From NCBI GenBank assembly GCA_030428885.1, contig JAUIEJ010000003.1:372001-436000 (forward strand): 64,000 nt of DNA, in the 5' to 3' direction. Below are positions 5,229-10,931 of the stretch, piece by piece. Every line of letters starts with the position of its first letter. The stretch's first letter is position 1. The stretch comes from Gemmatimonadota bacterium. GTDB taxonomy: Bacteria > Gemmatimonadota > Gemmatimonadetes > Longimicrobiales > Gaopeijiaceae. The position numbers and the translations under genes are program-made. Under the pieces are notes generated by a model. The model did no database searches. It was not told where the DNA came from and saw nothing but the letters and a program-made list of their open reading frames with translations.

Positions 5229-6536
5229 TCAACCGCCGTCCACCCGGCCGAAGCGCTCCTCGCGGATCTCCTGATACCAGGCGGCGACCACCGCGCCGGT
5301 GGCGTCGCGTTCGAAGCGGATGGGCGAGGGCAGGCCCCGGCCGCGGAAGAGCTCCTCGTCCACCCGGGCCAGGGCGATGGGAGGGCCGCCCTCCGAGGCG
5401 GCCAGTCCGCCGTCGTCGCGCCGCGTGACCTCCAGGTCCAGGTCCCACCCCGGGTGGTGATAGGTGCCCACGTAGTCGCCGGCCCGGGCCGTATCGAAGG
5501 GGAGTCCCACCAGGGGCTCGGGTTCGGGGTTGGCGTCGCCCAGTCCGTGCATCTGGCCGCAGACGGGGCAGGGGGTGGGGGCCATGCCGTTGCCCACCAC
5601 GTGGGCCACGGGCGCCAGGCGATGCAGCGCCGCGAAGATGGCGTCGAGCTCGTCGTCGGTGAGGGTGGCGAAGGCTTGCCACCGCATGATGGGGTGAAGG
5701 GTGCCGCCTCGACCCGTGCGCATGACCCAGCGGAAGTCCTCGGCGCTCAGCGATCCGATGCCCGAGGGGTCCGGGGTGATGTTCCTGGAGACCACCGGGA
5801 GGGAGTCCTCGTCCCAGACGTGGTTGCCCCCGGCGAACACCCCCGGCAGCATCGGCGCCTCCCACCCGGTGTGGCACCCGACGCAGTCGGCCACGTCCAC
5901 GAGGTAGCTTCCCAGTTCAACGGGGGTGGAGAGGTCGCGCTCCGGGACCGGCTCCTCCAGGGGGTAGGGGAACTCGGCCAGCTCCGCCTCCCGTTCCGCC
6001 GTGCGCCGTCGGGCGGGGAGGGGGTTGGACACCGGGGGGAGGGAGCGGAGATAGACCACGACCGAGGCCAGGTCCTCGTCGGAGAGGTTGCGGAAGCTCT
6101 CCCAGTACATGGGGAGGGCCAGGGCCCGGCCGTCGTGGCCCACGCCCTCCCGGATGGCCCGGGCCAGGGCGTCGTCGGGCCACGTCCCGGCTCCGGTGGC
6201 CGAGTCCGGCGTGAGGTTGGGGGCCACGACCCGGTCGCCCCCGGCGTCGTCCCACATCACGGTGCCGCTGAACTCCCGGCCGGCCACCGGGGGGTACCCC
6301 ACCGCCGAGGAGTCGGCGGGCGAGTGGCAGATGACGCACTGGAGGATCCCGTTGGCCAGATGCCGGCCCCGCTCCACCCGCGCCGGGGTGACCTCGAAGG
6401 TGCGATCGGTGAGGGGGCGCTGGCGCACCGCCTGGGCCGGCGGGACGGCGTCCCCTTCGTCCACGGCCGGCGCGTCTCCGCAGGCGGCGAGGACCAGGGC
6501 GGCGACGGCCAGGATTCCCGGACCCCGGCGACTCAT
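5229..6536 (-). CDS. Diheme cytochrome c lipoprotein with C-terminal lipocalin-like extension
   Basis: 435 aa. A lipobox (LAAC, Cys19) anchors an extracytoplasmic protein with two heme c sites, CVICH (67-71) and CVGCH (218-222). Each lies in a cytochrome c fold with NLTPDSATG or NITPDPSGIG, a context seen in alcohol/aldehyde dehydrogenase cytochrome subunits. A third Cys pair (CPVCGQMH) near residue 330 lacks the adjacent His of a heme site. The last 85 residues (from about YVGTYHHPGW) look like a separate beta-barrel domain. The ATG overlaps the stop of the ATP-grasp/SET gene (ATGA), making this the last gene of a coupled cassette. No dehydrogenase catalytic subunit is next to it. Confidence 0.88.
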   Translation of the reverse strand: MSRRGPGILAVAALVLAACGDAPAVDEGDAVPPAQAVRQRPLTDRTFEVTPARVERGRHLANGILQCVICHSPADSSAVGYPPVAGREFSGTVMWDDAGGDRVVAPNLTPDSATGAGTWPDDALARAIREGVGHDGRALALPMYWESFRNLSDEDLASVVVYLRSLPPVSNPLPARRRTAEREAELAEFPYPLEEPVPERDLSTPVELGSYLVDVADCVGCHTGWEAPMLPGVFAGGNHVWDEDSLPVVSRNITPDPSGIGSLSAEDFRWVMRTGRGGTLHPIMRWQAFATLTDDELDAIFAALHRLAPVAHVVGNGMAPTPCPVCGQMHGLGDANPEPEPLVGLPFDTARAGDYVGTYHHPGWDLDLEVTRRDDGGLAASEGGPPIALARVDEELFRGRGLPSPIRFERDATGAVVAAWYQEIREERFGRVDGG

Positions 6537-8017
6537 GCGCCCTCCGCCTGCCGGCGCGCCCGGATGTAGTCCGACACCTGGGCCCCGTAGCGGGTCACCA
6601 CGTCGCTGCGCCAGTCGCTGCCCCGGACCGTGCCGCGGCAGCCCCGAGTCCCACAGGTGCAGTGGAAATCGGGGAGGATCTCGTCATAGAGGGTCGCATA
6701 GTCCACGGTGATCTCGTCGCCCGGGTCCAGGTCCCGGCGGGCCCGCACCTCCAGCCCCGAAATCCAGGCGCTGGGGTCGCAGGCGTGATTCAGGGGTCGC
6801 CATCCCATGGGATCCCGGGGCCAGGCCACCCAGATGTCCCGGGTGAGGGGCCAGGCGCCCCGGAGCAGGCGCCGACGGGCCCGGGGGTCGGCCACGGCCT
6901 CGATGCGCTCTCGGCGCACGAGTTCGTGGGACGTGCCCTCGAGCCCCAGGATCGTCTCGCCCTCGGCCACCGATCGGGCGGCCACCAGGCCGTAGCCGCG
7001 ACCGTCGTGGCGGCGCACCTCCCACGCGGGCCGCCGGCGGGCGTGCCGGGCCAGGGCCGACTCCACCACCGAGCGCACGAACCCCTCGTGGCCCGCCGGG
7101 TCCCACTGGAGAATGAGGTCGGCGCTGGACGGGTCCGTGGGCGGGTAGAAGAGACCGCAGTTGGGATTGAGCTCCAGCATGAACGCCCGTCCGTCCGGGT
7201 CCACCCGGACGTCGCAGCGGGCGTAGCCCGATCCGTCCATGCCGGCGAAGAAACGCGCCGCGTCGTCCCGCAGCACGGCGTCGAGTCGCGCATCGGTGAC
7301 GGGGCCCGCGTCCAGGCCGTGGTAGTGGACCCACTTCAGGTCTTCGTGTTTGAACGTCTCACCCTCGGGAAAGCGGTACCGGAGCGGCTGGTAGGCGATG
7401 GGAGCGCCCTCGGGGTCCGGGTTCTCCGAGACCAGGACGGTGAACTCGTCGCCGTCCACGAATTCCTCCACCAGCGCGCCGTGGTACAGGCGCAGCATGC
7501 GCTCGACCTGGGTGCGGAGCTCGTCGGCCGTGGTGACCCGGGAGGCGGGAATCAGCCCGGCGCTGGCGTAGCTGGAGGGGTGCTTCACGATGAGGGGGAA
7601 GCGCAGGGTGTCGGCGGCCCGGTCCACGTCCCGGTCGCCGACGATCTCCACCGCCTCGGGGGCCGGGATGCCCAGGGCGTCGCACACCCGTTTCATGGCC
7701 TCCCGGGAGGGCTCGAAGAAGCCCGAATGGGCGCCGGTGAAGGGCACTCCCAGCCGCTCCAGGGTCTGGACCACCTCGATGCCCGGTCGGGCCTCGTCCC
7801 ACGCCCCGTCGCAGAGGTTGAAGTAGACGTCGAACCCCTGGCGAGCCACCTCCAGCAACGTCGGGACCCCGTCTTCCTTCTCCAGGGGCTGGACCAGCCA
7901 CGACGCCTCGGGAAGGTAGGGGCGGGGATCGCAGGGCCAGTCGTCGGCGGGGAGCGGCAGGCCCGAGTCCAGGTCCTGGTCGGTGAGGAGGCAGATGTGG
8001 AGTCCCTCGAACTCCAT
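6533..8017 (-). CDS. ATP-grasp (D-Ala-D-Ala ligase-like) / SET domain fusion protein
   Basis: 494 aa. Residues 1-325 resemble D-Ala-D-Ala ligases: LIVKHPSS with Lys145, VEEFVDGDEFTV with Glu184/Glu185, and ARCDVRVD...MLELNPN with Asp269, Glu282 and Asn284 for Mg-ATP. Residues about 331-442 form a SET methyltransferase domain with GRGYGL (SAM site), LNHACDPS (Asn410-His411), DEITVDY (Tyr440) and a post-SET Cys cluster (Cys453, Cys455, Cys460). The two activities are amide or peptide bond formation and protein-lysine methylation. The start overlaps the stop of the S9 peptidase gene by one base (TGATG), and the end overlaps the cytochrome gene by 4 bp. No signal peptide is seen, so it should be cytoplasmic. 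Substrate and whether the SET part is active are unknown. Confidence 0.85.
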   Translation of the reverse strand: MEFEGLHICLLTDQDLDSGLPLPADDWPCDPRPYLPEASWLVQPLEKEDGVPTLLEVARQGFDVYFNLCDGAWDEARPGIEVVQTLERLGVPFTGAHSGFFEPSREAMKRVCDALGIPAPEAVEIVGDRDVDRAADTLRFPLIVKHPSSYASAGLIPASRVTTADELRTQVERMLRLYHGALVEEFVDGDEFTVLVSENPDPEGAPIAYQPLRYRFPEGETFKHEDLKWVHYHGLDAGPVTDARLDAVLRDDAARFFAGMDGSGYARCDVRVDPDGRAFMLELNPNCGLFYPPTDPSSADLILQWDPAGHEGFVRSVVESALARHARRRPAWEVRRHDGRGYGLVAARSVAEGETILGLEGTSHELVRRERIEAVADPRARRRLLRGAWPLTRDIWVAWPRDPMGWRPLNHACDPSAWISGLEVRARRDLDPGDEITVDYATLYDEILPDFHCTCGTRGCRGTVRGSDWRSDVVTRYGAQVSDYIRARRQAEGA

Positions 8018-9981
8018 CAGCGCTCCTCGCTCACGGGCCGGCGCCGGACCTCGAGACGACGTTCCAGGAAGTCGGCGATCCGCCGGTAGGCCACGAGCCG
8101 GTTGTCGAGCTGTCGGATCCCGTGTCCCTCGTCGGGAAACCGGAGGTACTCCACCTCGCCGCCGCGCTCCCGGATGGCCCGGACGAACTGATCCGACTCC
8201 TCCACCGGGTCCCGGGGGTCGTTGGCTCCGTGGAGCACCATGACGGGAGCCTCGTCGCCGTCCACGAACGACAGGGGCGAGATGCGGGTGAAGAACGCCC
8301 GGTCGTCGGGGTCGTCGATGTCGCCATACTCGATGCGGTCGCTGGCCTTGAGCGCCGGGGACGCGCCTTCCAGCGCCGTCACCCAGTTCGACACCCCCAC
8401 GAAGGCCACGCCTGCCCGGAAGCGGTCGGGCAATCGGGTCACCGCGGCCATGGTCAGGTACCCGCCGTAGCTGCCGCCCATGACCGCCGCCCGGTCGGCG
8501 TCGACCCGTCCGTCGGTGGCGAGCCAATCCACGGCGTCGGCCATGTCCAGGTACTCCACCTCCCGCCGCCGCCCGTCGTTGGCCCGGGCGAAGTCCTTTC
8601 CGAAGCCGGTAGAGCCCCGGTAGTTCAGGTCCAGGACGGCGATGCCCCGGGTCAGGAGGTACTGGTGGGCTGGGTTGAAGCCGGGGCGGGCCTGGGCCGT
8701 GGGGCCCCCGTGCACGCCCAGAAGCACCGGCGGCCGCTCGCCGTCGGGGACGTTCGTGGGCAGGTAGAGCAGCCCGTGCAGGGTCAGGCCGTCCCGGGCC
8801 GGGAACGACACGGGCTCGGGCACCACCATGCGGGCCGGGTCGAGCCCCGCCATGGACGACGACGTGCTGCGATGCACCGACCCGCCCGCCACGTCCCAGC
8901 TCCAGATGTCGCCGGGCAGGCCCGGGCCCGAGACCCGCAGGGCCAGGACCGGCGCCTCGTCGGCCCAGCGGCCGCCCACGACCCCCCGGGGCAGCGCGTC
9001 GGGGGCCCCCACGTCGGCCCCGGTCTCCAGGTCCCGGACGTGGACTTCCGACCACCCGCCGTCGTTGACGGTCCAGAAGAGGTAGCGCCCGTCGCCCGAG
9101 AGGCCCGCCACGTCCACGTCCCGGGGGTCGTCCACCACCCACTCCAGGGTCCGGGAGGCCACGTCGTAGAGGGCCAGGCCCGCGTGGTCGCGCCCGTGGT
9201 CGGTGACGACGTAGAAGCCCGAACCGTCGGGAAGCCAGGCGGTGGATCCGTAGGCGTTGCGGGCCTCGGGTTCGGCCGCGGCGAAGAGCGTGTCGAGGCG
9301 CTCGGCGGCGACGTCGTACAGGTAGAGATCGTTGGCGTCTTCTCCACGGGACTCGGTGAGGACGATGGCCCCGCCGTCGGGGCGGAAGCTCTCGGGATAC
9401 AGTCCCATGCGACCCTGGAAGACCTCCCGGGCCTCGCCCCGGGCCACGTCGAGCATGTGGATGTCGAAGTCCACGCCGTTCCGCTCGGTGGTGGCGTAGA
9501 CGATGGCGCCGCCGTCGGCCGTGAAGGCGCCGAAGCTCCGGAAGGCGTCGGAAGGCGCCAGGAGTTCCCGCTCCCGGGTGCCGTCGGGGGAAATCAACCA
9601 GTAGCCCTCCCGCTCGTCGCCCCCCCGGTCGGCGGCGTACAGGATCCAATCGCCCGCGGGAGACCACCGGTGGTAGGTGACGCTCTCGCCGAAGGTGAGT
9701 TGGCGAGGCCAGCCTCCGGCGGCGTCCACGACCCAGAGCTGGGGACGCCCGGTGATGCTCGTGGAGAAGGCGAGGCGCCGCCCGTCGGGGGAGAGGGACG
9801 GGCTGCCTGCGCTGCGCACGTTCAGGAACCGGGCGATGTCGGGGCGGTCGGAGCCGGCCAGGGTCATCTCCACGGGTACCGGACGGGGCACGTCGTCGTC
9901 GTTCGGCGTGGGGGGCACGGTCTGGGACACGGCGGCGGACGGCAGGAGGCAGAGGGCGAGGGCCACCAGGGAGCGGGGCAT
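8017..9981 (-). CDS. S9-family prolyl oligopeptidase-like serine peptidase, secreted
   Basis: 654 aa from the ATG at 9981. A signal peptide ([20 protein letters not shown]) predicts export. Residues about 50-400 carry TolB/WD-like beta-propeller repeats ([29 protein letters not shown]). The C-terminal alpha/beta-hydrolase domain has GGSYGGY with nucleophile Ser504, an Asp in HGANDPRDP and His in DEGHGI, the triad of acylaminoacyl-peptidase/DPP-IV-type S9 enzymes. Length and order match the family. It is the first gene of the cassette, and its stop overlaps the ATP-grasp/SET start by one base. It probably cleaves short peptides outside the cytoplasm; the peptide substrate is not apparent. Confidence 0.92.
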
Positions 9982-10049: not shown

Positions 10050-10931
10050 TCAAGGGGGCGGCGCGGTGCGGAGGGCCGCCGCCACGACCTCGGGCCGGTC
10101 CACGGGGAGCAGGTGGGGCGCGCCCTCCACCACCTGGAGTGCGGCGCCGGGCACCCCCTCGGCCAGGGCCTCGGCCAGTCGGCGGGTTGCGGCGAAATCC
10201 TCCGTCCCCACCAGAACCGTGGTGGGGGCCGCCACGTCGCCCAGGCGCTCCAGGGGCGGAGTGCTCGGCGGAAGGGCCCAGCTCGGGTCCACCTGGAAGA
10301 GCCGGAGATTGTGGCGCACCACGGCGTCCACCTCCGCCTGACGGGCGGGGTCGACCCGGAAGGTCGGCAGCGCCGTGAGGGCGTCGCCGATGGCCCCGGC
10401 GTCGCCGGTGGGGAGGGCCTCCATGAGGGGCCCGAACACGTCGGGCACGTCGCCGGGGGCGGGGCGGAAGCCCCGGACCGAGGGCGACACCAGGACGAGG
10501 CCCGCCACCCGGGCCGGTTCCTCCAGGGCGAACTCCAGGGCCATGCCGGCCCCGGCGGAGAGACCCACCAGGCGGGCGCGGGTCAGGCCCGCCGCGTCCA
10601 TGACTTCGGCCAGGTCTGCGAGATCGGACCAGGGGCCCGCGGCGTCGACGGAGCCGCCGTGGGAGCGCAGGTCGTAGGTCACGACCCGGTGGTCGGCGGC
10701 CAGGGCCTCCACCGCGGCCCTCCAGATGCGGCGGTCCAGATTCGTGCCGTGGATCAGGACGACGCCGGGCCCCTCGCCGGTGGCCGACCACACCAGACCA
10801 CCGGCGGTGGTGTCGACCCGGGTCTCGGGCGGACGGGCGGAGGCATCGGGCCCGGCGTCGCCTGCGCAGGCGGCCGCCAGGAGAAGGAGGGCGCCGGGCA
10901 GGCGACGGAACCGGCGGAGGGGAGGAGTCAT
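10050..10931 (-). CDS. Alpha/beta hydrolase lipoprotein
   Basis: 293 aa. The N-terminus ([14 protein letters not shown]) is a lipoprotein signal with the lipobox Cys at about residue 22. The mature part is a compact alpha/beta hydrolase: oxyanion strand [14 protein letters not shown], nucleophile elbow GLSAGAG, an acid in [10 protein letters not shown] and a C-terminal His in EGAPHLLP. That set fits the haloperoxidase/esterase group. It lies 68 bp upstream of the S9 peptidase gene on the same strand and may share its transcript. The substrate cannot be told from sequence. Confidence 0.88.

What the first reader, a model, noticed from the sequence alone, without database searches (positions are those of the whole stretch)
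5229..9981. Coupled cassette: S9 peptidase, ATP-grasp/SET fusion, diheme cytochrome c
Three genes share bases at both junctions (TGATG at 8019-8015, ATGA at 6536-6533). The middle protein joins a D-Ala-D-Ala-ligase-like ATP-grasp domain to a SET methyltransferase with post-SET cysteines. ATP-grasp enzymes form peptide or amide bonds, and SET enzymes methylate lysines, so one protein might ligate and methylate a peptide. The exported peptidase and cytochrome could act on the product or on respiration. Together this could be a peptide-modification or signalling system with no obvious precedent.
Basis: partly seen in the sequence, partly recalled or inferred. Interest (0 to 1): 0.78.

Follow-up and report, generated by a model that had tools for sequence, protein, structure and literature searches.

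The report
Fused amino-acid ligase and methyltransferase enzyme
The middle gene encodes one enzyme that joins an amino-acid-linking domain to a methyl-adding domain; it belongs to an apparently unstudied family found across about ten bacterial phyla and probably makes a small methylated peptide-like molecule, while the peptidase and cytochrome beside it are chance neighbours.

Summary
Three overlapping minus-strand genes exist at the stated places, and the middle protein (494 aa) is a real ATP-grasp–SET fusion. AlphaFold2 gives pLDDT 89.8; residues 1-325 match D-Ala-D-Ala ligases (Z 29.6) and the SET part matches BurB and ASH1L (Z 11.8). Both active sites are intact and conserved.

The cassette interpretation fails. 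In the nearest relative, the fusion (76% identical) and the cytochrome orthologue (70%) lie about 2.1 Mb apart, and no S9 orthologue is present. None of 38 fused loci from the GTDB scan has an S9-type neighbour. Stop/start overlaps are ordinary here: 10 of 35 same-strand junctions by the gene caller used.

The fusion is the real find. It occurs in about ten phyla and was inherited as one unit. Forty-two SET-less copies form one nested clade. Several lineages add extra SETs of the BurB (methionine S-methyltransferase) type, a second ATP-grasp and an ABC or MFS transporter. Best explanation: a cytosolic amino-acid ligase plus methyltransferase making a small methylated peptide-like metabolite. 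Substrates are unknown. I found no paper describing this architecture in bacteria; the only precedent found is the eukaryotic pseudo-enzyme TTLL12, with a different order and lost catalytic residues.

The parts
6533..8017 (-). ATP-grasp–SET fusion enzyme (494 aa), the feature of interest
   Evidence: Pfam PF07478 and PF00856 both over cut-off; 32 of 32 aligned homologues carry both; AF2 pLDDT 89.8, pTM 0.85
7043..8017 (-). ATP-grasp (D-Ala-D-Ala-ligase-like) domain, residues 1-325; K145, E184, E191, K223, K228, R267, D269, E282, N284 invariant
   Evidence: VIA-align Z 29.6, 289 aligned, to DdlB 8evy; conservation
6533..7042 (-). SET + post-SET domain, residues 326-494; H411, C413, P415, Y440 and C453/C455/C460
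   Evidence: AF2 pLDDT 91.8; Z 11.8 to BurB 9l4v and ASH1L 4ypu; best PDB sequence match BurB, E 3.7e-8
8017..9981 (-). S9 (prolyl-oligopeptidase family) peptidase with signal peptide; neighbour, not part of the system
   Evidence: Pfam; 19 matches of this family in the same genome; absent from all other fused loci tested
5229..6536 (-). Diheme cytochrome c lipoprotein with DUF3471-like tail; neighbour, not part of the system
   Evidence: Pfam; orthologue in G001 about 2.1 Mb from that genome's fusion
10050..10931 (-). alpha/beta hydrolase lipoprotein upstream; the only neighbour kept next to the fusion in a congeneric genome (G003)
   Evidence: 56% identical to the hydrolase half of the gene directly upstream of the fusion in L034

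Best explanation
The middle gene encodes a cytosolic bifunctional enzyme. Its N-terminal ATP-grasp domain activates a carboxylate as an acyl phosphate and couples it to an amine, making a dipeptide-like amide. Its C-terminal SET domain transfers a methyl group from SAM to one of the building blocks or to the product. The output is most likely a small methylated peptide-like metabolite that this one gene can make alone. In other lineages the same core gains a second ATP-grasp ligase, extra BurB-type SET methyltransferases and an exporter, consistent with a longer, exported product. Shown here: fusion, folds, intact active-site residues, common inheritance, distribution, recurring partners, and lack of linkage to S9 or cytochrome c. 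Inferred: catalytic activity, a small-molecule rather than protein substrate, and the order of steps. Unknown: the substrates.
For: ATP-grasp: full Ddl fold, catalytic residues invariant in 81 fused plus standalone sequences; the genome has its own stronger Ddl candidate (PF07478 151.5 against 52.2 bits), so this is not the housekeeping enzyme. SET: intact NHxC and DY motifs and four zinc cysteines; nearest solved relative by sequence is BurB, which methylates free methionine (PMC12542666). Companion SETs in four lineages group together, and the one tested is closer still to BurB (L072 gene E 7.9e-13, best histone methyltransferase 1e-4); they occur as separate genes or as a third domain in the same ORF. 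Transporters: ABC in Chlorobiaceae loci, Gemmatimonadota G048 and three f5-family loci (membrane part seen); MFS in L049, L078 and L083. Second ATP-grasp gene directly before the fusion in 13 of 13 f5-family loci read. Patchy distribution, 26 of 249 genomes of the phylum, fits accessory metabolism. ATP-grasp and SET halves co-vary (Mantel r 0.76, 0 of 1000 permutations as high) and fused SETs form one clade.
Against: No substrate or activity is shown. SET domains are mostly protein lysine methyltransferases, and in structure BurB is only tied with histone enzymes. In the window's own lineage there is no exporter, second ligase or extra SET beside the gene. One clade of 42 works without a SET, so methylation is not essential to the ligation step.
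Confidence: 0.6

Rival explanations
1. It is a protein-modifying enzyme: the ATP-grasp domain adds an amino acid to a protein (as RimK or tubulin ligases do) and the SET domain methylates a lysine of the same or another protein.
For: Most characterised SET domains methylate protein lysines; the fused SET fold is as close to ASH1L, NSD2 and MLL as to BurB. TTLL12 couples SET-like and tubulin-ligase-like domains in eukaryotes (PMC3520985).
Against: The ATP-grasp half is of the Ddl type, which acts on free amino acids; companion SETs are BurB-like and linked to exporters and a second ligase; distribution is patchy within genera, unlike a housekeeping protein modifier.
Confidence: 0.2
2. The three genes form a peptide-modification or signalling cassette.
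For: Overlapping stop/start codons at both junctions make co-translation likely in this genome.
Against: No S9 or cytochrome orthologue beside any other fusion tested; in G001 the cytochrome orthologue is about 2.1 Mb away and there is no S9 orthologue; overlaps are common in the window; export signals separate the proteins from the cytosolic fusion.
Confidence: 0.04
3. The ATP-grasp domain is the active part and the SET domain mainly serves regulation or SAM sensing.
For: A clade of 42 standalone ATP-grasps lacks the SET; the SET half is less conserved than the ATP-grasp half (window SET 34-53% identical to other fused SETs).
Against: SET catalytic and zinc residues are near-invariant across 56 fused sequences in the broad alignment and the SET co-varies with the ATP-grasp.
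Confidence: 0.12

Closest known systems
D-alanine–D-alanine ligase (Ddl) superfamily, including VanA/VanG and similar amino-acid ligases
   Same: Full-length fold match (Z 29.6, rmsd 2.7, 289 residues) and conserved ATP-grasp catalytic residues
   Different: Far below NCBIfam cut-offs (60 against 243 bits); pocket motifs differ (FKHxDLKW, NPNCGxxY); carries a SET domain; the genome has a separate, stronger Ddl candidate
BurB, SET-domain methionine S-methyltransferase (PDB 9l4t/9l4v; PMC12542666)
   Same: Best PDB sequence match to the SET half (E 3.7e-8), tied best in structure, same post-SET cysteine arrangement; a companion SET is closer still
   Different: BurB is a stand-alone 172-aa protein in the dimethylsulfoniopropionate/malleicyprol pathway; here the SET is fused to a ligase
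TTLL12 (eukaryotic SET-like + tubulin-tyrosine-ligase-like protein; PMC3520985)
   Same: Only published SET plus ATP-grasp-type fusion found in the library
   Different: Reverse domain order, TTL-type ligase, and key catalytic residues lost with no activity in vitro
Graspetide / RiPP ATP-grasp systems (PMC8939145)
   Same: ATP-grasp ligase with methyltransferases and ABC exporters as recurring neighbours
   Different: That survey mentions no SET domain or Ddl-type ligase; a precursor-peptide gene was not looked for here

Membership tests
D-Ala-D-Ala ligase | Ddl fold over the whole ligase domain | tested here: met
   Z 29.6, residues 1-325
D-Ala-D-Ala ligase | Score above curated Ddl models | tested here: not met
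   60 bits against a cut-off of 243 and 57 against 246
D-Ala-D-Ala ligase | Ligates D-alanine | not testable with these tools
   Needs an assay; a separate stronger Ddl candidate in the genome argues against the housekeeping role
ATP-grasp carboxylate-amine ligase superfamily | Conserved ATP/Mg and catalytic residues | tested here: met
   K145, E184, E191, R267, D269, E282, N284 invariant in all 111 family sequences aligned; K228 in all but the 13 partner-A proteins
SET-domain methyltransferase | SET fold with NHxC/DY motifs and post-SET zinc cysteines | tested here: met
SET-domain methyltransferase | SAM-dependent methyl transfer | not testable with these tools
   Needs an assay
BurB methionine S-methyltransferase | Closest solved relative by sequence | tested here: met
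BurB methionine S-methyltransferase | Stand-alone small SET protein | tested here: not met
   Fused to a ligase in all 32 aligned homologues
BurB methionine S-methyltransferase | DMSP pathway genes (BurI, BurD, BurE) nearby | not tested
   No direct search was made
TTLL12 | N-terminal SET-like domain, C-terminal TTL domain | tested here: not met
   Order reversed and the ligase is Ddl type
Graspetide RiPP cluster | Precursor peptide gene beside the ATP-grasp | not tested
   Small precursor ORFs were not sought

The most novel reading that the evidence does not exclude
A previously undescribed pathway class in which Ddl-type ATP-grasp ligases and BurB-family SET methyltransferases, fused or side by side and often with an ABC or MFS transporter, build and export small methylated peptides; the window holds its simplest one-gene form.
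Probability: 0.45. Interest if true: 0.72.

Novelty: new variant of a known kind. Interest (0 to 1): 0.52.

Why it matters
SET domains are usually seen as histone and protein lysine methyltransferases; BurB showed only recently that a bacterial SET can methylate a free amino acid. A fusion of a SET to an amino-acid ligase, kept intact across about ten phyla, would extend that to peptide-like metabolites and give a ready route to find the product: express one gene and look for the new molecule. Present annotation would probably call these proteins D-Ala-D-Ala ligases or lysine methyltransferases.

Tried and rejected
Cassette with S9 peptidase and cytochrome c: rejected. Chance overlap of frames or a gene-calling artefact: rejected. 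Housekeeping Ddl: unlikely. TTLL12 orthologue: rejected by order and type. A fully conserved neighbourhood for the window's own subfamily: looked for and not found in 38 fused and 42 standalone loci. Clustering raw ORFs mostly returned antisense shadow ORFs. Plasmid search: no match. Paper searches for ATP-grasp with SET domain, Ddl with SET domain, or ATP-grasp with methylmethionine gave only TTLL12 and unrelated papers. The library is open-access only, so absence there is weak evidence. Substrate prediction from pocket residues was not possible beyond noting differences from Ddl.

Full report
What is there. Three minus-strand genes share bases as described. The middle protein, 494 aa, scores over the Pfam cut-offs for Dala_Dala_lig_C and SET. 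Its neighbours are an exported S9 peptidase and a diheme cytochrome c lipoprotein. Stop/start overlap is normal in this genome region: 10 of 35 same-strand junctions by a simple gene caller.

Is it a cassette? No. The nearest fused relative (G001, same genus, 76% identity) has the fusion at 3.00 Mb and the cytochrome orthologue (70%) at 0.86 Mb, with no S9 orthologue. tblastn of the S9 and cytochrome proteins against 110 fetched loci found no orthologue beside another fusion: two weak S9-family hits in loci without a fusion, and none in the second batch of 17. Among 38 fused loci from the GTDB scan, none has an S9-type nucleophile motif in the two genes on either side, and only one (L046, the same locus as L034 of congeneric genome G003) has a same-strand heme protein directly adjacent. 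That gene is a cytochrome c fused to an alpha/beta hydrolase, and the hydrolase half is 56% identical to the window's hydrolase at 10050-10931. So within the genus the hydrolase is the kept neighbour, and the S9 and diheme cytochrome are local.

Is the fusion real and intact? Yes. AF2 on a 32-sequence alignment gives pLDDT 89.8 and pTM 0.85; the ligase half matches DdlB with Z 29.6. The SET half alone gives pLDDT 91.8 and matches BurB and ASH1L with Z 11.8. ATP-grasp residues K145, E184, E191, K223, K228, R267, D269, E282 and N284 are invariant in 81 fused and standalone sequences of the broad set. SET residues H411, C413 and P415, the active-site Y440 and zinc cysteines 453/455/460 are near-invariant in the fused forms (Y440 is F in 4 of 17 in the phylum set).

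How widespread? A GTDB scan found 189 relatives; of the best 80 loci, 38 are fused and 42 are ATP-grasp alone. By record title the fused ones span Gemmatimonadota, Planctomycetota, Acidobacteriota, Actinomycetota, Rhodothermota, Myxococcota, Chloroflexota, Methylomirabilota, Chlorobiota and Pseudomonadota. Most are MAGs and some labels may be wrong. Of 249 genomes drawn from the window's phylum, 26 have it. The standalone ligases form one nested clade, consistent with one loss of the SET, although several forks are weak. The two halves co-vary (Mantel r 0.76, 0 of 1000 permutations) and fused SETs form one clade apart from companion SETs, which points to one ancestral fusion.

What travels with it elsewhere? 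In the f5 family, 13 of 13 loci read have a second ATP-grasp gene directly upstream, overlapping the fusion by about 4 nt or lying close to it. Three (L163, L165, L166) also have an ABC-type membrane gene downstream, and L163 an extra SET as well (the domain of the L165 gene was judged by sequence likeness only). Chlorobiaceae loci have SET / ATP-grasp–SET / ABC transporter / SET, some cut by contig ends. Solirubrobacterales have SET / fusion / MFS. Myxococcota L067 and L073 and Pseudomonas L094 carry a further SET in the same ORF. G048 has three ATP-grasps, one SET and an ABC exporter together. The FFYPSTEW-type companion SET is clearly nearer to BurB than to any histone enzyme. In the window's own subfamily no neighbour is conserved across genera, so there the gene probably works alone.

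How it most likely works. Ddl-type ATP-grasps make acyl phosphates and couple them to amines (established knowledge of the family). BurB-type SETs methylate a free amino acid (PMC12542666). Joined in one cytosolic protein, with exporters and more ligases in some lineages, the simplest reading is synthesis of a small methylated peptide-like metabolite. The substrate pocket motifs (KHPxSY, FKHxDLKW, NPNCGxxY) are shared by fused and standalone members of this subfamily but differ in the f5 family, so the subfamily probably has one specific substrate pair. All activity claims are inference.

Novelty. The domains are known; I found no description of this bacterial architecture in the open-access library. 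TTLL12 is the only precedent found and differs in order, ligase type and catalytic state. No NCBIfam model fits the query above its cut-off, and the family matches only Ddl-like models in general. I rate it a new variant of a known kind, with the pathway reading as the upside.

Noticed in passing
L041-L044 (genomes G052, G023, G038, G044): Two tandem Ddl-like ATP-grasp genes beside a gene that looks, from its N-terminal sequence, like a KamA lysine 2,3-aminomutase (about 430 aa), in some with a GNAT-like gene, recur in several relatives; possibly a beta-amino-acid peptide or osmolyte operon (domains not confirmed by Pfam).
   Followed up: no
L072:7809-8315, L067, L073, L094, L163: A BurB-like SET family with the motif FFYPSTEW recurs with the ATP-grasp–SET fusion, sometimes as a third domain of the same protein.
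   Followed up: partly
L069 (CAMASI010000002.1): A contig titled Klebsiella pneumoniae MAG carries a fused copy among genes unlike Klebsiella (protein kinase, diverged sigma factor); probably a mislabelled bin.
   Followed up: no
window 10050-10931; L034 7159-8379: The alpha/beta hydrolase lipoprotein upstream is a free-standing protein in the window but fused to a cytochrome c in a congeneric genome.
   Followed up: yes
G000:C23:253412-253699 (L001, L045 8371-8760): The window's genome has one other SET-domain gene (129 aa by my call), stand-alone and distant from the fused SETs.
   Followed up: partly
G000:C13:88658-94174 (L040): Cluster of several ATP-grasp-like genes near an acyl-CoA-synthetase-like gene in the window's genome, not linked to the fusion.
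   Followed up: no
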